Positions 1 through 11,399 of a stretch of 24,634 nucleotides of DNA are shown piece after piece. The translations under genes and the position numbers were made by a program. Source of the stretch: a virus; IMG/VR virus record IMGVR_UViG_3300010354_000615, positions 1 through 24,634 of that record, one strand, 5' to 3'. Position 1 is the first letter of the stretch, and each line of letters starts with the position of its first letter. The notes below the pieces were generated by a model. The model made no database searches, was not told where the DNA came from, and worked only from the letters and a program-made list of their open reading frames with translations.

Positions 1-982
1 ACTGAACAATACTATTGTCTAGGATACAAAGTTGCTTGAGAATTAGTTCAATTGCTGTCTTGATAAGAACCATAGTGGCAGCACTGATGCCAGTAAATGA
101 TGCAATCAGTCCAATTCCCTTACTAATCTGTCCAGCAAGTTCATTCAACCATTCTCTCATTGCAGCAACTGTCTGAGCAGCAATCGCCATAATTGCATTT
201 TTGATCGCAGCAGTAATTTTATCGATAGCAACAGGGACGTTATCAGAAAGACGCTTATATACACCTGGTTGTACTTTCACAAGACCAGCAACTTCCTGTG
301 CTGCCACATTGACAATATTTGTCAGGTGCATCTTCAAAGTTTTTGCTGGACCTCCAGTTCCATCTGCAGCAGGAACTGGAGAAAATGGAGGAGTTTGCTG
401 AGGAGATGCTTGAGATACATTTCCTGCGTTTGTTGGGTTTCCAGGATTAGGTTGTGATTGTTCTGACTGATTGGGAAGTTGAACACTATTGATTTGGTTA
501 GCAACAGTCGGTCCATCTGGACCAGTAGTAGTGTTTTGTCCTGCAGGAGCAGTCGTAGTATTGGTATATGGTGTGTTTGATTCTCCAGTCAATACAAAGA
601 ATGGTTTATCTCTAGACTGCTCTCCCTTGACTACACGAAGAACTCCCATAACAACTGGTTGCTGTCCCTCTTCTCCATCAAAGAAGAACCCCATTACAAT
701 AGCACCTGGTTGTAATTGACCAGAAGATTCACCCTGCCCATCGTTGCCAGCTTGTGTGGTCGGTTGCAAAACTAACGCCCAAGGAAGTTCTTCCCCAGGA
801 AGATCTTTCAATGTATCTCCAGATGGATTGGTATACCAACCCAAGATACGACACTTTACACGACCGATATTTAGAGGGTCTTCATTATTTTCGACCTCAC
901 CAATCCACCATGTGAGACTATCTTTTCCAAAAAAGTCGTTGCTCCTTTCATTAGGATAACCTTCTACAACTGAAGCAGGCAT
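1..982 (-). CDS. 5: gp5-like baseplate central spike/hub protein (partial, 3' end outside window)
   Basis: The reading frame is open for 327 codons from the ATG at 982 to the window edge; the C-terminus is missing. Residues about 22-115 match the N-terminal OB-fold domain of T4 gp5: the stretches WWIGEVENNEDPLNIGRVK, LPWALVLQPTTQAG and a GAIVMGFFFDGEEGQQPVVMG strand region align well. After this comes a low-complexity linker rich in Gln, Pro, Asn, Thr and Ser (about residues 130-215), then hydrophobic, Ala- and Ile-rich helices. In T4 the OB-fold is followed by a lysozyme domain; I see none in the 327 residues visible here. The protein should sit at the tip of the tail tube with the gp27-like hub encoded upstream. 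A TAAATA motif lies 26 nt before the start. I see no clear Shine-Dalgarno sequence. Confidence 0.85.
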   Translation of the reverse strand, partial: MPASVVEGYPNERSNDFFGKDSLTWWIGEVENNEDPLNIGRVKCRILGWYTNPSGDTLKDLPGEELPWALVLQPTTQAGNDGQGESSGQLQPGAIVMGFFFDGEEGQQPVVMGVLRVVKGEQSRDKPFFVLTGESNTPYTNTTTAPAGQNTTTGPDGPTVANQINSVQLPNQSEQSQPNPGNPTNAGNVSQASPQQTPPFSPVPAADGTGGPAKTLKMHLTNIVNVAAQEVAGLVKVQPGVYKRLSDNVPVAIDKITAAIKNAIMAIAAQTVAAMREWLNELAGQISKGIGLIASFTGISAATMVLIKTAIELILKQLCILDNSIVQ

Positions 983-1752: not shown

Positions 1753-3150
1753 TTACGATGCTTTTTCTTGTGTACTATCACGAACAAGTAAACAATTTGT
1801 AGTCAATTTTCCACTCTTGAAACGATGAGTAACCCCTGCTACCATCCATCTACCGCTCCATCTCTTATCAACTGGTATTTTCTTATCTGATGGTTTATCA
1901 GGAAGATTCTTAGGGATTTCTACCTCAATACCATATCCAGCATAAATGTCCAGATTTCCAGCAAATTGAATTGAAAGTTGCTGATACATAAATGATTTTA
2001 GACGTAGATAACTGTATGATGAGGCATCAACAATGTCTTGGAAGTTTTTACCACCTGCAGCGACTGCCTTCTTATCACCAGGTACTCCAAAAGTTCTGCT
2101 CAATATTGGTTTGAGTCTATGTCTTCTTGGAACAGAGTACAAATAATCTGGAGCACCTTTGTATGGTTTTGCTTTCTCTACATGTGCCATACTACCCCAA
2201 ACTTGCTCAATTAGATATTCTCTAGTTGCCGCTGGCGTATCTTTAGATGGATCCTTAGAAGATCCCTTTGCCAATTCAACTGGATCAAATGCTTGAGTAT
2301 ATCCAGCTAAAGTTCCATGTCTAATCTGATCCAGGAGACTGTAAGATTTGGGAAATGTCAACTTATCAATCAAAAATTCATTCTCTTCTGGATTATTTTG
2401 TCCAAGATTTTTCTGCCCGTAAGTATATTTGTAAAGTGGTGGAATGGGTCTTGCTCCACAATTGCTTCCCTGCGTGATAGTCTTTGAACTTGATGATTGT
2501 TTTTTAGAATCCTCAATCAATTTATCCAATGAAGTGAAATGGAATCCAAAAACATTTTCATACAAAATGAATCCAGATTGCCTCACAGATCCAGATTTAT
2601 TAGCCCTAATTGACTTCTCACACAACCAGTTGATGCAATTGAAAACTCTCCAATTTGTTGCAACAAAAGTAAATGTTGCGTCGGTATTTTCAATAAAAAC
2701 TTTTTTCTCCGTAAATTTACCGATTGTCTTGAATTGTTTCTTGGTCATAATTTCACATACATGTTCAGATGCTTTCTTGTCTTTGAATGACCCGAAAACA
2801 TTTGATAGTTCATTTCTAAGAAATTCACCAGATGCTAGATGAATCATATAGACAGCACGTTTTTCTTGACGTACATAATCGCTAACTTTGAATGATTCTA
2901 ACTTATACGTTTGATTTCTATGCTTGCTCTTGATTTCAATATTCCATCTCTCTCCACCATCCAAGTTTGTAATAAGGTCTCCAGAGTCATCAATTACAAG
3001 TCTTGCATATATGCATGGTGTATCAATAGATTCAGTGATTTCACACTCAATGATATATTGATCAAGATAGAATGTTTTTCCGTCAGGACCAGTTCTCCCA
3101 TCCATCCAGGCATGGAATATGGCGTCGCCTGTCTGATTTAGAATTTCCAT
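1753..3150 (-). CDS. 27: gp27-like baseplate hub protein
   Basis: 465 aa. I see no single diagnostic motif, but several features fit the hub family of T4 gp27 (baseplate ring that joins the gp5 spike to the tail tube). The N-terminal half is a series of alternating beta strands (YIIECEITESIDTPCIYARL, then an IEIKSKHR strand). A helical, Lys-rich section lies around residues 125-145, and the C-terminal strand block is of the type WSGRWMVAGVTHRFKSGKLTT, typical of phage hub and gpD-like proteins. Length is somewhat above T4 gp27 (391 aa). Its position also agrees: downstream of gp51/gp26 and the giant hub proteins, upstream of gp5. The ATG follows directly on the stop codon of the 1462-aa gene, so the two are probably translated in series. 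Confidence 0.62.
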   Translation of the reverse strand: MEILNQTGDAIFHAWMDGRTGPDGKTFYLDQYIIECEITESIDTPCIYARLVIDDSGDLITNLDGGERWNIEIKSKHRNQTYKLESFKVSDYVRQEKRAVYMIHLASGEFLRNELSNVFGSFKDKKASEHVCEIMTKKQFKTIGKFTEKKVFIENTDATFTFVATNWRVFNCINWLCEKSIRANKSGSVRQSGFILYENVFGFHFTSLDKLIEDSKKQSSSSKTITQGSNCGARPIPPLYKYTYGQKNLGQNNPEENEFLIDKLTFPKSYSLLDQIRHGTLAGYTQAFDPVELAKGSSKDPSKDTPAATREYLIEQVWGSMAHVEKAKPYKGAPDYLYSVPRRHRLKPILSRTFGVPGDKKAVAAGGKNFQDIVDASSYSYLRLKSFMYQQLSIQFAGNLDIYAGYGIEVEIPKNLPDKPSDKKIPVDKRWSGRWMVAGVTHRFKSGKLTTNCLLVRDSTQEKAS

Positions 3151-6100
3151 TTATAGACCGCTTCCTCCAATTCCAGCGAATAATCCGAACCCAGGACGAT
3201 ATTTGACAATATCATCATCACCCAACCGTCCACCCCCACCAATAGGGATCTCAATTTGACCACCACTGTTGTGTTGAACTTTCTTATTTAGTGAACTTGC
3301 CTTAGCGGTAGCTTGACCCTGCTGAGCAATTGACTGAGCATATTTATTAGCAGCACTAGCTTTATCGGAAGCAATTTGTGCTTTCAGTATTCCATTGGTT
3401 TCAGTAGATTGCTTTACTGCCTGAGATGTCGGTTCTGCTGCTGGTTTGACATTAGCAGGATTAGATACTGGTGGATTTGCTGTTGAACGGTACTTGGCAG
3501 CAGCAGTATGTGCCTTGACATAATGCTCTAGTTCTGCACCATTTAGACCCTGTGCTCTTCCTTCTTCTCTTGCTCTCTTCGCAGCTTCAAAAATTGTAGG
3601 ATCACTCGCAGCAGTTTTTGTTGGATCAAGTAATTTATTCAATTGATCTGAACTCATCTTCAAGTAATCAGCAGCACTCTTGGTTGGAGCTGGTTGAGTT
3701 CCTCCAGTTGCAGTTGGTGCTCCTGGTGTTGCTGGTTTTGTTCCTCCAATAGAATCAGTTCCTGATCCTGATGGTTTTTGCCCAAGTGATGTGAGTGCTT
3801 TATCAATTGCATCTAAAAATGCTTGTTTTGGATCTGCACTTGCTTCACCTTTACCAGTAGCATTTGCATCTGCAGCATTTGGATTATTAGGATCTAGTTG
3901 AAGACCAGTACCAGTTGCTCCACTCATTGCTGCAAGAACAGTCTTAGAGTCATCCGATCTTTCTTTTTGCTCTCTTGGACCCTGATCTGCTGGTTTTTCG
4001 TAATTCTTCAGAACCCAATTTGACGCAGCAACAACTTCTTTGGTTCCAGTAAATACCGAAGACATGTAGGTTTTGAATTCCTGTGCCAAAAATCCCGTTG
4101 CCAGTGCATCAGTTGCACCTTTATTCTTCCAGTCATGACCCTTGGATTCCATGTACTTGGCAAAGTTTTTCTGCCTATCAATGGAAGTCCACTGCGGATA
4201 CGAATATCCAGTAACACCATCCAATTTGAGTGGACCTCTTTTTCCTCCTTGAAGTACATCTGGACGTAATCCACTCTCTTGGTTTACATTACCAACAATT
4301 GCTGCTGCTTGATAATCTTTGATTCCAAGCATGTTCTGCAAATCTTTAGCAATGTTCGCACCTTTTGTCTGGAGTGCTCCACCACCAGCCATTTTTCTCA
4401 AGAATCCCCCTAGAGATTTACCTTCTAGAGATGCATTTGCTTTGTTGATTGCATCCAAGAATTTATCGATAAGTTGTTGAGGGGTTTCCTTCTCTTGCGT
4501 TGCACCTTCTGCAGCAGAAGGTGTTGAATTACCAGAAGTATCGACACCTTTAGCATTAGCAACTTCTTCTGCAGATAATGGTTTGGGATTGCCCATCAGT
4601 GCAGTAAGTTCTGGACTAATTGGAATGAGACCCTTACCATCCAACTTCATTGCAGTAAAATGAAGGTGTGTATTGGTATCACTTGCATTTCTACCATGAC
4701 CACCAGATTTGTCACTTACAGGTCCGAGTATTTGACCAAATGATTTCCCTGCAAGGGGCATCATCTTCTTTTCCCATGCAATAGTTTCGTTCCACCAAGT
4801 TGGACTATTTCCAGATGGACCGAAGTACCCAGCATCCATAGCATTATATCCATGGTTCGGAGTTCTATGGGCAGCATTATTATATTTTCCAGGATCAAAT
4901 GCGTTTTCATTTGGTTGGAATCCAATCTTTCTTAGATAACCACCCCACTGCTTCCAATTGATAAATCCACCAGCATTACGTTGCCTACGTTGACCATCGG
5001 CGTTATCTTTCGATAACTGCTTTCTAGCTGCTTTCCATGCTTCTGGCAGTCCCTCTGGTTGTTCGTATATCTTAGATCCATCTTCTTTATAATTAGTAAT
5101 CTTTGCAACATTGGCATAGAGTTCAGATTTATTTGCGATTGGAGATGAATACCCAGTTCCAAGAGTTCCTGTAAATGCTCTACTTCCAATTGGGGCTGAT
5201 CCAAAAGCAGATTTAGAGAAATCCGTCGTCAATCCAAGAGAAGCAGCAAGTTGAATTCCCTTAGAACCCAAATCCCAGGCATTTCCAGTTGCTCGTGAGT
5301 TTAGATATGATTGAATCTCATCATATCCAGATTGCCCTGGTTTTACCTTTCTAGCAAGATCTGGGAAATTCTTCGCCCACTGCTGCATTGGCGTAAGATT
5401 AGATCCAGCAACTTTTGGAGATACAAGTTTAGAACCTTCAGTTTTAGTATCTGGTTTAGATCCAGATACATCTGGAGTTCCAGATAACATCAGAGCATCA
5501 TTTGGAACATTACCAGTAGTATCCAAATTTCCACCCTGAGATAATTTGAATCCAGCAGACATCGCTTCTCCCATGCGTCTGCCAGTAAGATTTTTATTTC
5601 CTCTGGTTGCTGGAGTATCAAATGGTACTACATATGCACTTCTAGTGTTTCCACCGCCAGATTTAGTGGCAACATATTCTGTACCATGACCAATAAATGC
5701 TACTGATTTTCCACCATCTAGAGATACTGGATATCCTGTTTGTGGTCCTTGTATCCATCCCCCTCCAGCAGCAAAGAGTCCAAGAAACTTACTTCTAGCA
5801 GGTGCTGGTTTTCCAGCAGGTGCTGGTTTTCCATTGCCAGTTCTTCCAAAATTCCTAGGGGAAGCACCAGCCTCACCATATCCACTACTATTTGCACCAT
5901 ACGCCTGATTTCGTTCTTCAATCTGCGCCTGTGCTTTTACTTTAGAAATTTCTTGCTTCTTTTTTTCTTCTTCCTGTTTCTTCTTTTGAGCGATGGTGCC
6001 ACCACCCTTGGACATACTGCCGATGGTTGCTTTCAGTCCAAATGCAGACGCAACTGGACCAACCAATCCTTGCATCATCTTAGAAAGGAATCCAGCACCA

Positions 6101-7539
6101 GGAACCTTGGATAGAACCTTAGCAAGATTGTTGATGACACCAATGGTTGCTAGTCCAACCATCTTCATTGGCAAATATACCAATGTTGGAATCAATTTTT
6201 GTTGTTTCTTGTACTGGGCATCCCCTACAGGTACTTCAGCTTTCTTTTTGCCGAGGAACGAATCTAGTTTGGTTAGTGGTTCAAATTTACCTAGATTTTT
6301 TGGCAGAGACGGCGCAGGTGCAGTAGGTGTTGGACCACCCTCTGCCCTTCTTGGTAATCTACCACCACGAGACATTGGTGGAGTTGCCGCTGGTGGTGGT
6401 AACTCTGGTGGTACAGGTGTTGATTGTGGAAGTATTCCGCCAACTCCTCTGGTTGGCGTTGGAGCTGGTAAAGATGGAGCATCAGGTGCTTCGCCCTGTG
6501 GAATATCTCTTCCTGGTGCTGGTTGAACACCACCCTTAGGAGATGGAATTGCCTTCTCTTTTGCTGGGGCCTGTGATTTTGCTTCAGTATCAGAGATAGC
6601 CTTGGTAGCATCTCTATTGAATCGTTCAACTTCCTTCTTATTCTCTTTTTCGTCTTCTAATTCAAGATCGGAAAGTTCCTTCTCGGCATCGTCTAGATCT
6701 TTGCCAGTAACACCATCAGCAATTCGATCGATTGCATAGGATGCTCCGAATGCTGCTGCAGCACCCAGAACCATTTTGCCAACTCTACCCTTGCCGCCTC
6801 TCAGAAGATTTTTGGAACTTCTAGCAATGAACTTTGTAAGTTTGGCAGAGAATTTCAGTAGTGCTTTGAAAAATCCCTTGAATAGACTGAATACTTGCTT
6901 TACAACAAATTTGACTGCCTTACCACCGAACAGCTTTCTGAATGCCAAGAAAGATGTACCAAGAGCAGCCATGAAAAGACCGAACTTTAGAATCTCTTTC
7001 CAGAAAGGCAGTTTAGTAAATCCAGCAATCAGTTCTAATGTAACGTATACTGTGCCAGATACTATTTTATAAAGAAATTTACCGATCTCTGCTAGTGCGC
7101 CAACAATACTTGCGAGTTTCTTTTGATTCTCCTCTTTACGCATCCAGTCAAGAACTGGTAATACGATGAATAGTTTGAACAGTGATCCAAACAAACCAAG
7201 AATACCGCCAGCACCCTCAGCAACGATTTTACCAAAACTTCCAACAACTCCACTAGTAAATGAAAGTTTTCTTCCTTTTTTACCAGGATCTTCCTTAGGT
7301 TTCGCTTTTACTTTGGTAAGTTTCTGCTGTGCTATAAAGTTCTTAGCAGAAAGTTGAACATACTCATCAAGTACTCTAGCAATTCCATTGACAGTAGATC
7401 CCAGATTATTCAATCCTTGGGTTACTTTGCTATCCCCGATAGATGTAAATACTCCTCTCTTGCTGTCAATTTTACCAACAAACTTGTAAAAATTGATCTT
7501 TTTTCCTTTGACTTGTTGGATCTTCTGTTCGTTTGCCAT
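3151..7539 (-). CDS. Giant tail hub/tape-measure-like protein with M23-like and tail-lysozyme domains
   Basis: 1462 aa. The N-terminal ~280 residues contain a coiled, Lys-rich stretch and long hydrophobic helices (about 95-270). Next is a charged and Pro-rich linker (about 290-410), then Gly/Lys/Gln-rich segments with an imperfect AGKPAP duplication (2 x 18 bp at 5797-5832). Residues 715-751 form a module shared with the neighbouring 1286-aa protein. Residues about 870-970 look like a degenerate M23 peptidase: His896, Asp902 and a final HLH at 958-960. Residues about 1050-1170 resemble phage tail lysozyme, with the probable catalytic Glu1088 in NQESGL. The C-terminus is Ala/Gln-rich, ending in a Gly-rich tail. 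Gene position corresponds to the T4 hub/tape-measure region (genes 27-29). The likely role is tail tip structure plus local cell-wall digestion. Its ATG overlaps the upstream stop codon (TAATG). Domain calls are by eye. Confidence 0.7.
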   Translation of the reverse strand: MANEQKIQQVKGKKINFYKFVGKIDSKRGVFTSIGDSKVTQGLNNLGSTVNGIARVLDEYVQLSAKNFIAQQKLTKVKAKPKEDPGKKGRKLSFTSGVVGSFGKIVAEGAGGILGLFGSLFKLFIVLPVLDWMRKEENQKKLASIVGALAEIGKFLYKIVSGTVYVTLELIAGFTKLPFWKEILKFGLFMAALGTSFLAFRKLFGGKAVKFVVKQVFSLFKGFFKALLKFSAKLTKFIARSSKNLLRGGKGRVGKMVLGAAAAFGASYAIDRIADGVTGKDLDDAEKELSDLELEDEKENKKEVERFNRDATKAISDTEAKSQAPAKEKAIPSPKGGVQPAPGRDIPQGEAPDAPSLPAPTPTRGVGGILPQSTPVPPELPPPAATPPMSRGGRLPRRAEGGPTPTAPAPSLPKNLGKFEPLTKLDSFLGKKKAEVPVGDAQYKKQQKLIPTLVYLPMKMVGLATIGVINNLAKVLSKVPGAGFLSKMMQGLVGPVASAFGLKATIGSMSKGGGTIAQKKKQEEEKKKQEISKVKAQAQIEERNQAYGANSSGYGEAGASPRNFGRTGNGKPAPAGKPAPARSKFLGLFAAGGGWIQGPQTGYPVSLDGGKSVAFIGHGTEYVATKSGGGNTRSAYVVPFDTPATRGNKNLTGRRMGEAMSAGFKLSQGGNLDTTGNVPNDALMLSGTPDVSGSKPDTKTEGSKLVSPKVAGSNLTPMQQWAKNFPDLARKVKPGQSGYDEIQSYLNSRATGNAWDLGSKGIQLAASLGLTTDFSKSAFGSAPIGSRAFTGTLGTGYSSPIANKSELYANVAKITNYKEDGSKIYEQPEGLPEAWKAARKQLSKDNADGQRRQRNAGGFINWKQWGGYLRKIGFQPNENAFDPGKYNNAAHRTPNHGYNAMDAGYFGPSGNSPTWWNETIAWEKKMMPLAGKSFGQILGPVSDKSGGHGRNASDTNTHLHFTAMKLDGKGLIPISPELTALMGNPKPLSAEEVANAKGVDTSGNSTPSAAEGATQEKETPQQLIDKFLDAINKANASLEGKSLGGFLRKMAGGGALQTKGANIAKDLQNMLGIKDYQAAAIVGNVNQESGLRPDVLQGGKRGPLKLDGVTGYSYPQWTSIDRQKNFAKYMESKGHDWKNKGATDALATGFLAQEFKTYMSSVFTGTKEVVAASNWVLKNYEKPADQGPREQKERSDDSKTVLAAMSGATGTGLQLDPNNPNAADANATGKGEASADPKQAFLDAIDKALTSLGQKPSGSGTDSIGGTKPATPGAPTATGGTQPAPTKSAADYLKMSSDQLNKLLDPTKTAASDPTIFEAAKRAREEGRAQGLNGAELEHYVKAHTAAAKYRSTANPPVSNPANVKPAAEPTSQAVKQSTETNGILKAQIASDKASAANKYAQSIAQQGQATAKASSLNKKVQHNSGGQIEIPIGGGGRLGDDDIVKYRPGFGLFAGIGGSGL

Positions 7540-10500
7540 TAGTACATCTTGAATCTAGTGCTGAGTAATGAACTTGTGAGCGGCATATAGATTGGAACGG
7601 GTGGTGCTACTTGAGTTGTGCCACTTCCACTATTTATTGGCACTGGTACTGGTACTGGCATAGTATTAGATGCTTCCTTCGTCTTCTCATCTCGTTCTTC
7701 TTTTTGAACGGATTGATTTTTTAGAATAGAACCCTGAATTTGAACTTTATCAGTCACTTCTTTGAATACATTCAATGCTGGAGATTTTGTGGTAGCATAA
7801 GAGACAGTATCTTTTGCTGCTTGAGTTGCTTTATTTTTTAGGAAGTCCTGAATCTCATTGAATCCACTTTGTCCTGGTTTTACAGCTTTTGCAAGTTCTG
7901 GGAAATTCTTTGCCCATTCTTGCATTGGTGTCAATTTTGCAAGACCGAGTTTACCAGTAAGAGCATCAGCAGCTTTCCCAAATATACCCTTAGTATCAAC
8001 TCCAAAGGATCCTGCAATTGATGAAAGACCTTTACCATTCAATAGATTGGTTGCTGCTCCAAATTTATCTCCTAGAATATTCTTCCCAGCGCCAAATGCC
8101 GTACTAGCAATATTCCCAGGATTGAATCCACCACTAAAAGCAGACTTACCAAAGTCAACTGCCTTTCCTAGAACACCACTTCCAAGACCAGGAACAAAAC
8201 TACTCGCAGCACCAAATGCAACATCAGTGAGAGATTTTCCTCCCAAAAGTCCCCCAACTGCATTTCCAGCAACTGCTCCAAGAGGACCACCTATAAGACC
8301 ACCAACAGCACCCAAAAGACCGCCACCGCCTCCACCAAAGAGACCACCAAAGAGACCACCACCGCCTCCACCACCGCCGAAGAGACCGCCAAAGAGACCA
8401 CCATCTTTCTTATCTTCTTCTTCCTCCTTCTCTTTGAATCCCATCTGCTCTGCTAGTCTTTTCAGAGAAGCTTTGTATACAATATAATGACCATCATTTA
8501 CTTGCTGTGATAATCCAAGCAATTGATCCTTTCCGAGTCTCTGCTTCCCTGGTGCTGGCATTGTAGATGGAACTGCAATAGCACCAGTTCTAATTGGAAC
8601 AGGACCACCAGTTGCAAGAGATGCATTAGATTTCATCAATCCCTGCAATTTTGGTGGGTAACTAGGATCAGTAGCATAACCCTCTGCCTTTAGCATCGAT
8701 GCGGCGGCATCTGCAGAAGAAGCTCTATTGACCCCTTTGTACCCCTTATAATCTTTATACCACTGACTTACAAGATGATTTACTGCATCTTGTGCGCTAG
8801 GGAAGTTCTTGAATCCAGCAGTAATCGTTACAGTTTTGCCACCATAAACTTCTTGAGTTTTGTGGGATTGAGAAGATTCTCCTGCTGCTGCTTTGATTCC
8901 GAAGTAATTGTGTTGAGCTGATAATGCGGTTCCCCATCCAGATTCGAGAGCAAATTGTGCAGCAACAAGTTGAGGCCATTTTGCTCCTGCTTTGGAACCC
9001 ATTTCTTTGAACTTCTTCCACTTTTCTGCTTTAGACCCTGTAACAGGTGGACCAGCAGGACCAGCTGGAGCAGATGTATCTGGGGATGCTGTTGTTCCAG
9101 AAGGTGTTGTTCCAGAAGGTGTTGTTCCTGAGGGATTTTGTTGAGTATCAGCAGCAGGTTCATTTACAACTGTTGGGGTGTCTTGTGCAGAGAGCAGAGA
9201 AAGAAGATTTAGATCAGTTCCAGTATCACTACCAGCCTTAGCAAGATCTAGAATACTAGCATTTGCACTGACCAATCCAGCAGCAGTGGAGGAACCACCC
9301 AATTTCTGAACACCAAATGCTCCAGCAACAGAACTAAGTTCCGATCTAAATTCCTGTGCCCCTGGAACTCCCCTAATTCCACCAAGTACTGACGAAGTTG
9401 CACCAATGAGATTTTCTGCACCAGGAAGAATACTTCTAGATGTCGGATCCAAAAGTCTCTCAAGTTGTGTTTTTGTTAGAACAACTTCTGGTTCAGTTTC
9501 AGCGACCTGAATAAAGGATGGTTTCATAATGATACCACCAGTGCTGAATGCTCCTTCTGGAGATGGTGGTATACCCATAAGATCAGCAATCTTATTACCT
9601 ATCCATTCACCACCCCACTGAGCAACACCAGTGATAACACCACCAGCAATAACAGCACCAATACCACCTGTACCAAGTCCCAGAGCAGCAGTAGCAGCGC
9701 CTCCTGCGATGAGACCAGCAACTGATCCACCTAACTTCAATGCAACCCGTCTAGGATCTGTGCCTGCCTTCAGATCCATCAACGCAAACGCCGCTTCAAT
9801 AGCGAGATCTAGTGGTCCAATATGCAGAGGACCAAGAGTATTCTTCAGGTTCCTTAGATGAGGTTTTACAAAATCAGCAAACTGATTGAATGCCTTGGCA
9901 AATCCAGCCTTTGCTCCCTTCTTCGGAAACAGACTTAGTAGTTTTTGAAGAATTGGAGACTTTTTGATAAATTCTCCGATATTTGCTTTGAGTGGTTCTA
10001 GAACTTTTTGAAGTATCCAGTCATTTCCCTTCTTAGCCCATTCTTTAGACCACTTCCAAGCACTCTTTGCTTTTTCTGGTATTGAGATTACACCTTTGTA
10101 TAGATTCTTGGCACCTTCGGCAACTTTCTTACTTACGTCTCGTATAGCTTGAGCAATTTTAGTATTTTTTGCCCAACTTACAAATCTATTTCCTTGATTC
10201 TTTGCAAAATCAGTAGCTTGTCCAACTTTATCAACAACAGTATCTTTTGTCTTATTGAGTAGTTTTCCAGCACTATCTCTCAGAGCAGTAGCTTTGTCCC
10301 CAACTGCCTTTACGATATCTACTGCTTTCTTACCAGGAACAGAATCTAGAACTTCTGCAATTGCTCGTTTTGCTGCAGGTCTAATTGTGTCATAGTATTG
10401 ACGTAGTGCAAATGCTACGACTCTACTAGACAATGCTTGAATATATCTGCGTGCTGCTGCCAAAACAGCAGTTCTAAATTTCGTAAAACGTCTACCAAAA

Positions 10501-11399
10501 CGTTTTGCAAATATTCTTACTCTTTGCTTGAACTTGTCGAGAAAAGTCTTTGGTTTTTTACCTTTAGGTTTATTTGGTTTATCTGGATCTGTAGGTTTAC
10601 CATCTGGTCCACAGGGACAATCGCCACTAGCACCCGTTTTATCTGCAACTTCCAGCAGATCCAAGATGCCACCCATGAGCTTCCATGGGTTTAGGAACAT
10701 AGACAATCCCTTGAGGGCAAGAAGACCCACCATGAGTTGCCCGAATCCCATTATGGTATCCCAGGCACCACCTAATACATTACCCTCTTTGAACTTCCCT
10801 ACACCACCAAATACCTTTCCAAGACCATCAATTAGGTTTGTTACACCAAATTCACCCCATTTATAGAGAAATTTGAAAATTTCTCCCATGAATTCAACAA
10901 GTCTTTCAACTTTTTCAATATTCTTGGGATCAGAGAACCACTCCAGTGCTCCCATGATGGCAGCATAGTTGATAAAGGGAGAGAGAACGTTGAAAATATC
11001 AATGAGTGGTCCAAAAATCTTTTCTAAAAATCCCTTCTTCTTTTTAGGATCTTTCTTGATTTCCTTTTCACCAGATTTTTTTATTGAATCCCTATCTGCA
11101 TCAGTAGCTTCTACTCGGTCTTCCGCTGCCTGATCTAATGATCTTCTCTTAGAACGGCGTTCATCAACTTCATCTTCTCGTAGTGAAATCGCTCGTACTT
11201 CTTCAATCGATTTGAGTGCTTTTACACTCGTATAAATGCTGTTGCATGTTGCTCCAAGTCTATTGACACCAAGGAGAACTTTTGCATATGGTAGAGCACC
11301 AGGTTTTGCGGCACCAATACTCTTAGCGGCTGCTTTTTCTTCGCCACTAAGAGATGGATTTACAAACTTATATCCTAATTTTGCTGGTGCTCCTGCCAT
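7539..11399 (-). CDS. Giant tail hub/tape-measure-like protein with GH73 glucosaminidase domain
   Basis: 1286 aa. The N-terminus parallels that of the 1462-aa neighbour: a NRLGATCNSIYTSVKAL helix, a Lys/Asp/Glu-rich stretch, then an amphipathic block ending FKFLYKWG. Long amphipathic helices, rich in Ala and Lys, fill residues 250-560. About residues 565-610 are hydrophobic and Gly/Ala-rich. A segment reading IQVAETEPEVVLTK resembles elements common in tape-measure proteins. Residues about 790-925 match glucosaminidase (GH73, FlgJ-like), with LVAAQFALESGWG placing the catalytic acid at Glu819. A Gly-Leu-Phe repeat tract follows (about 999-1035), then the shared module at 1156-1192. Expected role: part of the tail hub or tape measure that also cuts peptidoglycan during DNA entry. 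It begins directly after the gp51 stop. Confidence 0.7.
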   Translation of the reverse strand: MAGAPAKLGYKFVNPSLSGEEKAAAKSIGAAKPGALPYAKVLLGVNRLGATCNSIYTSVKALKSIEEVRAISLREDEVDERRSKRRSLDQAAEDRVEATDADRDSIKKSGEKEIKKDPKKKKGFLEKIFGPLIDIFNVLSPFINYAAIMGALEWFSDPKNIEKVERLVEFMGEIFKFLYKWGEFGVTNLIDGLGKVFGGVGKFKEGNVLGGAWDTIMGFGQLMVGLLALKGLSMFLNPWKLMGGILDLLEVADKTGASGDCPCGPDGKPTDPDKPNKPKGKKPKTFLDKFKQRVRIFAKRFGRRFTKFRTAVLAAARRYIQALSSRVVAFALRQYYDTIRPAAKRAIAEVLDSVPGKKAVDIVKAVGDKATALRDSAGKLLNKTKDTVVDKVGQATDFAKNQGNRFVSWAKNTKIAQAIRDVSKKVAEGAKNLYKGVISIPEKAKSAWKWSKEWAKKGNDWILQKVLEPLKANIGEFIKKSPILQKLLSLFPKKGAKAGFAKAFNQFADFVKPHLRNLKNTLGPLHIGPLDLAIEAAFALMDLKAGTDPRRVALKLGGSVAGLIAGGAATAALGLGTGGIGAVIAGGVITGVAQWGGEWIGNKIADLMGIPPSPEGAFSTGGIIMKPSFIQVAETEPEVVLTKTQLERLLDPTSRSILPGAENLIGATSSVLGGIRGVPGAQEFRSELSSVAGAFGVQKLGGSSTAAGLVSANASILDLAKAGSDTGTDLNLLSLLSAQDTPTVVNEPAADTQQNPSGTTPSGTTPSGTTASPDTSAPAGPAGPPVTGSKAEKWKKFKEMGSKAGAKWPQLVAAQFALESGWGTALSAQHNYFGIKAAAGESSQSHKTQEVYGGKTVTITAGFKNFPSAQDAVNHLVSQWYKDYKGYKGVNRASSADAAASMLKAEGYATDPSYPPKLQGLMKSNASLATGGPVPIRTGAIAVPSTMPAPGKQRLGKDQLLGLSQQVNDGHYIVYKASLKRLAEQMGFKEKEEEEDKKDGGLFGGLFGGGGGGGGLFGGLFGGGGGGLLGAVGGLIGGPLGAVAGNAVGGLLGGKSLTDVAFGAASSFVPGLGSGVLGKAVDFGKSAFSGGFNPGNIASTAFGAGKNILGDKFGAATNLLNGKGLSSIAGSFGVDTKGIFGKAADALTGKLGLAKLTPMQEWAKNFPELAKAVKPGQSGFNEIQDFLKNKATQAAKDTVSYATTKSPALNVFKEVTDKVQIQGSILKNQSVQKEERDEKTKEASNTMPVPVPVPINSGSGTTQVAPPVPIYMPLTSSLLSTRFKMY
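8316..8403 (-). repeat. Low-complexity repeat coding for a Gly-Leu-Phe tract
   Basis: Imperfect tandem copies of an AAGAGACCACC-type unit mixed with poly-CCACC on the plus strand, encoding repeated GGLFGG and long glycine runs in the 1286-aa protein. This is a flexible or hydrophobic linker region prone to length change. It is not a CRISPR: there are no spacers and the frame is kept. Confidence 0.8.
9091..9135 (-). repeat. Three tandem 15-bp repeats coding PSGTT
   Basis: The unit GTTGTTCCAGAAGGT occurs twice exactly and a third time with changes. It encodes three PSGTT pentapeptides in the linker just ahead of the GH73 domain of the 1286-aa protein. Its likely role is an adjustable spacer. 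Confidence 0.85.

What the first reader, a model, noticed from the sequence alone, without database searches (positions are those of the whole stretch)
3880..9040. Three different wall-degrading domains spread over two neighbouring tail proteins
GH73 glucosaminidase (Glu819 in ALESGWG) is in the 1286-aa protein. An M23-like site (His896, Asp902, HLH 958-960) and a tail-lysozyme-like domain (Glu1088 in NQESG) are in the 1462-aa protein. Together they would cut both glycan and peptide bonds, which could suit the thick, cross-linked cyanobacterial wall. The M23 spacing (HxxxxxD rather than HxxxD) suggests a variant or inactive site.
Basis: partly seen in the sequence, partly recalled or inferred. 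Interest (0 to 1): 0.6.

Follow-up and report, generated by a model that had tools for sequence, protein, structure and literature searches.

The report
Swappable wall-cutting domains in cyanophage tails
Two neighbouring, related tail proteins of a T4-like cyanobacterial virus carry several cell-wall-cutting domains that relatives of the virus swap for other kinds at the same place, and one of them belongs to a family of putative metal enzymes that none of the libraries searched describes.

Summary
The 1286-aa protein (B) carries a GH73 glucosaminidase and the 1462-aa protein (A) a Phage_lysozyme2 domain; both match Pfam strongly and their catalytic Glu is invariant in relatives. The "M23-like site" is real but matches neither M23 nor any other Pfam, NCBIfam or PDB family. 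It is a conserved domain family of about 110-125 aa: 31 relatives, several in tape-measure proteins including that of cyanophage S-2L, keep H(x5)D and HxH plus three more His/Asp. The spacing is a family feature, not decay. Two predicted models match no solved fold. I call it a putative metal-dependent peptidase.

The locus matters more. A and B share a homologous N-terminal scaffold at a fixed place between gp26 and the hub-like protein. In 20 pairs compared, catalytic domains differ from phage to phage (eleven Pfam families over cut-off). In the nearest relative the M23-like segment is replaced by an NlpC/P60-like domain. Fifteen of 20 pairs combine glycan and peptide/amide cutters. Published mass spectrometry finds both proteins of this place in virions of two phages. 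So this is an exchangeable, virion-borne set of wall-cutting domains, often annotated "endolysin". Enzyme activity is inferred, not shown.

The parts
7539..11399 (-). protein B, 1286 aa: first of the paired tail proteins
   Evidence: ORF; ortholog of the first gene of the pair in S-ShM2, S-SM1 and others
10680..11399 (-). N-terminal scaffold of B, about residues 1-240
   Evidence: homologous to the A N-terminus: hhalign 99.6%, E 1e-24 between ortholog sets; conserved in isolates
8625..9014 (-). GH73 glucosaminidase domain of B (796-925), catalytic Glu819
   Evidence: PF01832 E 5.9e-20; FlgJ structures; Glu819 65/65
7809..7952 (-). 48-aa LTPMQ-WAKNFP motif in B (1150-1197), also present in A
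   Evidence: 60% identity to A 709-756, E 1e-14
3151..7539 (-). protein A, 1462 aa: second of the paired tail proteins
   Evidence: ORF; ortholog of the second gene of the pair
6850..7539 (-). N-terminal scaffold of A, about residues 1-230, with hydrophobic segment 109-133
   Evidence: 53% identity to S-ShM2 second gene over 1-216; hydropathy
5512..5769 (-). conserved glycine-rich module of A, 591-676
   Evidence: 40-69% identity to the second gene of eight isolates
5272..5415 (-). 48-aa LTPMQ-WAKNFP motif in A (709-756)
4585..4965 (-). putative metallopeptidase domain (the M23-like segment), about 859-985; conserved H891, H896, D902, D943, H948, H958, H960
   Evidence: 31 relatives; own-record profile match E 2e-43; AF2 pLDDT 80
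3928..4341 (-). Phage_lysozyme2 domain of A (1067-1204), Glu1088
   Evidence: PF18013 E 3.8e-15; Glu1088 14/14
3154..3219 (-). conserved C-terminal tail of A (1441-1462)
   Evidence: 77% identity to L002 and 64% to S-ShM2 while the stretch before it is less conserved
1753..3150 (-). hub-like tail protein directly downstream (T4-GC15 family); marks the place of the pair
   Evidence: phrog_350 E 6e-115; the family was detected in the S-SM1 virion (PMC3037559)
11588..12301 (-). gp26-like baseplate hub protein upstream of the pair
   Evidence: PF12322 E 5e-75

Best explanation
A and B are paralogous, virion-borne tail proteins of a T4-like cyanomyovirus. Each has a conserved N-terminal scaffold that places it in the tail or baseplate hub, followed by exchangeable peptidoglycan-cutting domains. 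During injection the domains reach the periplasm and open the wall locally: GH73 (B) and the tail lysozyme (A) cut glycan strands, and the H(x5)D/HxH domain (A) cuts peptide stems or cross-links with a bound metal, probably zinc. The domain set is a combinatorial cassette: phages keep scaffold and position but swap the catalytic domains, usually keeping one glycan cutter and one peptide or amide cutter. Shown here: domain identities, conserved residues, fixed position, scaffold homology, replacement of the M23-like segment by an NlpC/P60-like one in the nearest relative. Shown by others: presence of both proteins of this place in virions of two phages. Inferred: wall cutting, metal binding, peptide-bond specificity, location in the tail, role at entry.
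For: Domains and catalytic Glu. Position between gp4, tail tube, gp26 and the hub-like protein in every isolate read. Scaffold homology of A and B families, hhalign 99.6%, E 1e-24. Orthology of A with second genes and B with first genes. In L002, 59% (B) and 48-56% (A) identical, A 761-1040 falls to 12-35% identity while the stretches on either side are at 62-85%, and the segment there is NlpC/P60-CHAP-like. Eleven wall-hydrolase families over Pfam's cut-off at this place in 20 pairs. GH73 lies in the first gene here and in the second gene of S-RIM2 at 53% identity. Both proteins detected in virions: S-SCSM1 gp213 (GH73) and gp214 (VanY) (PMC9602691); S-CREM2 gp208/209, 73 and 71 unique peptides (PMC10665884). 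The M23-like domain occurs in tape-measure proteins (S-2L, L015, L021, L028) and directly after a transglycosylase stretch in L024. Precedent: a wall-cutting motif in the TM4 tape measure helps infection of stationary cells (PMC1796659).
Against: No activity or metal binding was measured. S-CREM2 gp208/209 show no detectable homology to the A or B scaffold, and S-SCSM1 only a weak one, so their mass spectrometry bears on this locus mainly by position, domains and neighbours. Five of 20 pairs do not show both bond classes (S-CREM2, ACG-2014a, S-SSM4, Syn19, L003). Several matches used are below Pfam's cut-off (L002 NlpC, L004 and L005 M23, S-SM1 M15_3, ACG-2014b Hydrolase_2). The authors of the proteome papers suggest capsid packaging or carry-over instead of a tail role.
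Confidence: 0.8

Rival explanations
1. The middle domain of A is an ordinary, diverged M23 (lysostaphin-like) endopeptidase.
For: H(x)nD plus HxH layout; spacing varies in true M23 (PMC9662197); other phages carry recognisable M23 at this locus (P-RSM1, metaG-MbCM1, L011).
Against: No M23 match for any of 25 members at E <= 5; hhalign 2.6% against an M23 profile, the aligned 13 columns not joining the motifs; no PDB fold match; two further conserved His (H891, H948) and Asp943.
Confidence: 0.15
2. The middle domain is a distant M15 (D-Ala-D-Ala peptidase) relative within the LAS group.
For: Local likeness GHx4HMxxxAxDM to the M15_3 domain of S-RIM2, where hhalign also lands; M15-type domains occur at the same locus.
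Against: hhalign probability 0.9%; no Pfam M15 match in 25 members; spacing is x5, not the x6 of M15 (own knowledge; seen in the S-RIM2 domain); HxH instead of the M15 ending.
Confidence: 0.3
3. The middle domain is not catalytic: a degenerate or metal-stabilised wall-binding or structural module.
For: No activity data; no fold match; inactive M23-like folds with other roles exist (PMC9662197).
Against: Seven His/Asp positions conserved at 29-40% identity; replaced at the same place by an NlpC/P60-like peptidase domain in L002; next to a transglycosylase stretch in L024.
Confidence: 0.2
4. A and B are lysis enzymes (endolysins) carried over on virions, as many database records name them, and act at release.
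For: RefSeq and PHROG label 'endolysin'; authors of two proteome papers allow carry-over or capsid packaging.
Against: Very large proteins with a conserved scaffold, fixed among baseplate genes; 71-73 unique peptides each in S-CREM2 virions; a stand-alone lysozyme-like candidate exists elsewhere in Syn19.
Confidence: 0.12

Closest known systems
Mycobacteriophage TM4 tape-measure peptidoglycan hydrolase motifs (PMC1796659)
   Same: Wall-cutting motif embedded in a large tail protein; found in several phages; helps DNA injection
   Different: One siphovirus tape measure with one tested motif; here two paralogous proteins beside the baseplate hub genes, several domains, myovirus
T4 gp5 tail lysozyme
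   Same: Tail-borne lysozyme acting on the wall at entry (general knowledge)
   Different: In this phage a separate gp5-like gene also exists (window 2-982); A and B are extra
S-SCSM1 gp213/gp214 and S-CREM2 gp208/gp209 (PMC9602691, PMC10665884)
   Same: Same position, large size, wall-hydrolase domains, detected in virions
   Different: Described as endolysins or non-structural; other domain combinations; scaffold homology weak or undetected
Tape measure protein of cyanophage S-2L (QQG31340)
   Same: Carries the same H(x5)D/HxH domain (30% identity over 126 aa)
   Different: A single tape-measure protein of an unrelated phage; the domain is not annotated there
M23 peptidases
   Same: H(x)nD and HxH layout
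   Different: No sequence or fold match; extra conserved His and Asp

Membership tests
GH73 glucosaminidase (PF01832) | Profile match over curated cut-off | tested here: met
   72.6 bits against 30.2
GH73 glucosaminidase (PF01832) | Catalytic Glu aligned with FlgJ and conserved | tested here: met
GH73 glucosaminidase (PF01832) | Glycosidase activity | not testable with these tools
   needs zymography
Phage_lysozyme2 (PF18013) | Profile match over curated cut-off | tested here: met
   56.7 bits against 28.2, profile 10-139 of 140
Phage_lysozyme2 (PF18013) | Conserved acidic residue | tested here: met
   Glu1088 14/14
Peptidase M23 (PF01551) | Profile match | tested here: not met
   none in the window, none in 25 members at E <= 5
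Peptidase M23 (PF01551) | H(x)nD and HxH metal motifs | tested here: met
   H896(x5)D902, H958xH960; spacing varies in M23. The layout alone does not define membership
Peptidase M23 (PF01551) | M23 beta-sheet fold | tested here: inconclusive
Peptidase M15 (PF08291, PF13539, PF02557) | Profile match | tested here: not met
   none in 25 members
Peptidase M15 (PF08291, PF13539, PF02557) | H(x)6D motif | tested here: not met
   H(x)5D in all members
Phage tail length tape measure protein | Homology to a known tape measure such as T4 gp29 | tested here: not met
   hhalign 0.4% (A) and 3.0% (B) against T4 gp29, a single sequence
Phage tail length tape measure protein | Length sets tail length | not testable with these tools
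   no tail length for this phage
Virion-associated peptidoglycan hydrolase | Present in the virion | tested here: inconclusive
   shown by published MS for the pair at this place in S-SCSM1 and S-CREM2, not for this phage

The most novel reading that the evidence does not exclude
The H(x5)D/HxH domain is a previously undescribed family of metal-dependent peptidoglycan peptidases with its own small alpha/beta fold, spread among cyanophage tape-measure and tail proteins and interchangeable with NlpC/P60-type peptidases in a combinatorial wall-cutting cassette.
Probability: 0.35. Interest if true: 0.65.

Novelty: new variant of a known kind. Interest (0 to 1): 0.5.

Why it matters
T4-like cyanophages kill abundant marine picocyanobacteria, but how they open the wall at entry is little studied, and the responsible genes are filed as 'endolysin' or 'hypothetical'. 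A fixed tail locus with swappable catalytic domains would mean that wall-cutting specificity evolves by domain exchange, and could be tested as a host-range determinant.

Tried and rejected
A close-relative scan with the window's own M23-like segment found nothing; the weak S-2L hit opened the family. A scan of 84,980 bacterial and archaeal genomes with the two-row alignment found none, a limited test with two patterns. Foldseek matches of both models are at noise level and were not used. Homology of A or B to T4 gp27, gp28 or gp29 was looked for and not found; the hub-like neighbour against gp27 is only suggestive (7.5%). That A and B are the tape measure was considered and left open: homology absent, tail length unknown. 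The PDB search for the lysozyme2 domain gave only noise. Conservation in alignment A5 is biased because members were chosen with a motif pattern; the less biased figures are those, where one relative of 31 (L039) lacks the C-terminal motif, apparently from a frameshift. Papers were searched for a description of this exchangeable tail pair: none found in the open-licence library, which does not hold most subscription journals.
Full report
What is there. The window is a 24,634-base virus record with the gene order of a T4-like cyanomyovirus: gp4-like head closure, a tail tube protein, gp26-like hub protein, then protein B (7539-11399, minus strand, 1286 aa), protein A (3151-7539, 1462 aa), a hub-like tail protein, CpeT and a gp5-like gene.

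Three domains. B 796-925 is GH73 (E 5.9e-20) and A 1067-1204 is Phage_lysozyme2 (E 3.8e-15), both far over Pfam's cut-offs. Glu819 falls on the Glu of ALESGWG in solved FlgJ and is invariant in 65 of 65 sequences; Glu1088 in 14 of 14. The third site has no Pfam, NCBIfam or PDB sequence match.

A family of its own. A weak match to the tape measure protein of cyanophage S-2L (E 6e-3; shared HRTPNHxxNAxDxG and HxH) allowed a two-row search that returned 30 viral contigs. With S-2L that gives 31 relatives, 29-40% identical to the window. They keep H891, H896, N899, A900, D902, D943, H948, and, in all but one, H958 and H960. The odd one, L039, apparently changes frame in the middle. Of five host proteins scanned whole, three (L015, L021, L028) match tape-measure families well and L022 weakly; L024 has a transglycosylase stretch just before this domain (domain position). 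The longer H-to-D spacing is therefore a stable property of a family, and true M23 enzymes also vary in it (PMC9662197). Profile comparison with M23 (2.6%) and M15_3 (0.9%) is not significant, although the M15_3 comparison lands on a similar GHx4H...AxD stretch. AlphaFold2 models of the window domain (pLDDT 80) and of a central member, L022 (pLDDT 88, pTM 0.80), place the Asp and the HxH on strands, but neither finds a solved fold.

The locus is a cassette. Near relatives of the whole pair exist in L001 and L002 (B 59%, A 48-56% identity). There A 761-1040 drops to 12-35% identity between stretches of 62-85%, and the segment is an NlpC/P60-CHAP-like domain, below Pfam's cut-off (E 9e-4), with Cys and His motifs. 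The swap of one putative peptidase for another supports a peptidase role for the window's version.

In isolates the pair has a fixed place between gp26 (and gp51) and the hub-like protein. A matches the second genes, B the first, chiefly over residues 1-216 and the module 591-676 of A and over the N-terminus of B. The two N-termini are homologous to each other (hhalign 99.6%, E 1e-24). The catalytic part differs: S-ShM2 lysozyme2 with C39-like and GH24; S-SM1 GH24 with M15_3; S-RIM2 GH73 with M15_3; S-SSM4 VanY; P-RSM1 Hydrolase_2 with M23; S-H38 lysozyme2 with M15_4; ACG-2014a Amidase_2; ACG-2014b Amidase_2 with Hydrolase_2; S-CREM2 GH19 with GH24; S-SCSM1 GH73 with VanY; metaG-MbCM1 Hydrolase_2 with M23; Syn19 none recognised; uncultured pairs lysozyme2 with M23, M15_3, VanY plus M15_4, GH73 plus M23, or alone. 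GH73 is in the first gene here and in the second in S-RIM2 (53% identity), so domains also move between the two genes. Counting the window's third domain as a peptidase, and including matches somewhat under Pfam's cut-off, 15 of 20 pairs combine a glycan cutter with a peptide or amide cutter.

In the virion. Mass spectrometry of S-SCSM1 detected gp213 and gp214 (PMC9602691), which lie at this place and carry GH73 and VanY. S-CREM2 gp208 and gp209, same place, gave 73 and 71 unique peptides (PMC10665884). The authors thought of packaged or carried-over endolysins. The baseplate neighbourhood, the size and the conserved scaffold make a tail location more likely; this is inference. Scaffold homology of those two pairs to A and B is weak (S-SCSM1) or undetected (S-CREM2), so this support rests mainly on position and domains.

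Mechanism. Following TM4 (PMC1796659), the likely action is local wall opening at injection: GH73 and lysozyme2 on the glycan, the metal-type domain on peptides. Activity, metal and bond specificity are not shown.

Verdict.

Noticed in passing
window 5272-5415 and 7809-7952 (minus strand): A 48-aa motif (LTPMQ-WAKNFP-L-K-VKPGQSG) occurs in both A and B at 60% identity; the B relatives in L001/L002 match it at two places. Its function is unknown.
   Followed up: partly
L087 8830-9420 (Syn19) and L005 11956-12663: Small stand-alone proteins (about 196 and 236 aa) match the lysozyme2 domain; the Syn19 one lies near psbA. They may be the true endolysins of these phages.
   Followed up: no
L080, L083, L084, L191, L192 (RefSeq cyanophages): The paired tail genes are named 'endolysin' in RefSeq, which is probably misleading for proteins set among baseplate genes.
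   Followed up: partly
S-CREM2 ORF124 (PMC10665884, Table 3): A 2668-residue virion protein with 450 unique peptides; at about 0.15 nm per residue this gives about 400 nm, close to the 418 nm tail, so it might be the tape measure of that phage.
   Followed up: no
   Followed up: no
L046 4984-14055 (S-CREM2 pair): The pair at this place carries GH19 and GH24 but shows no detectable homology to the A/B scaffold; only the neighbour gp210 matches its counterpart (E 2e-20).
   Followed up: partly
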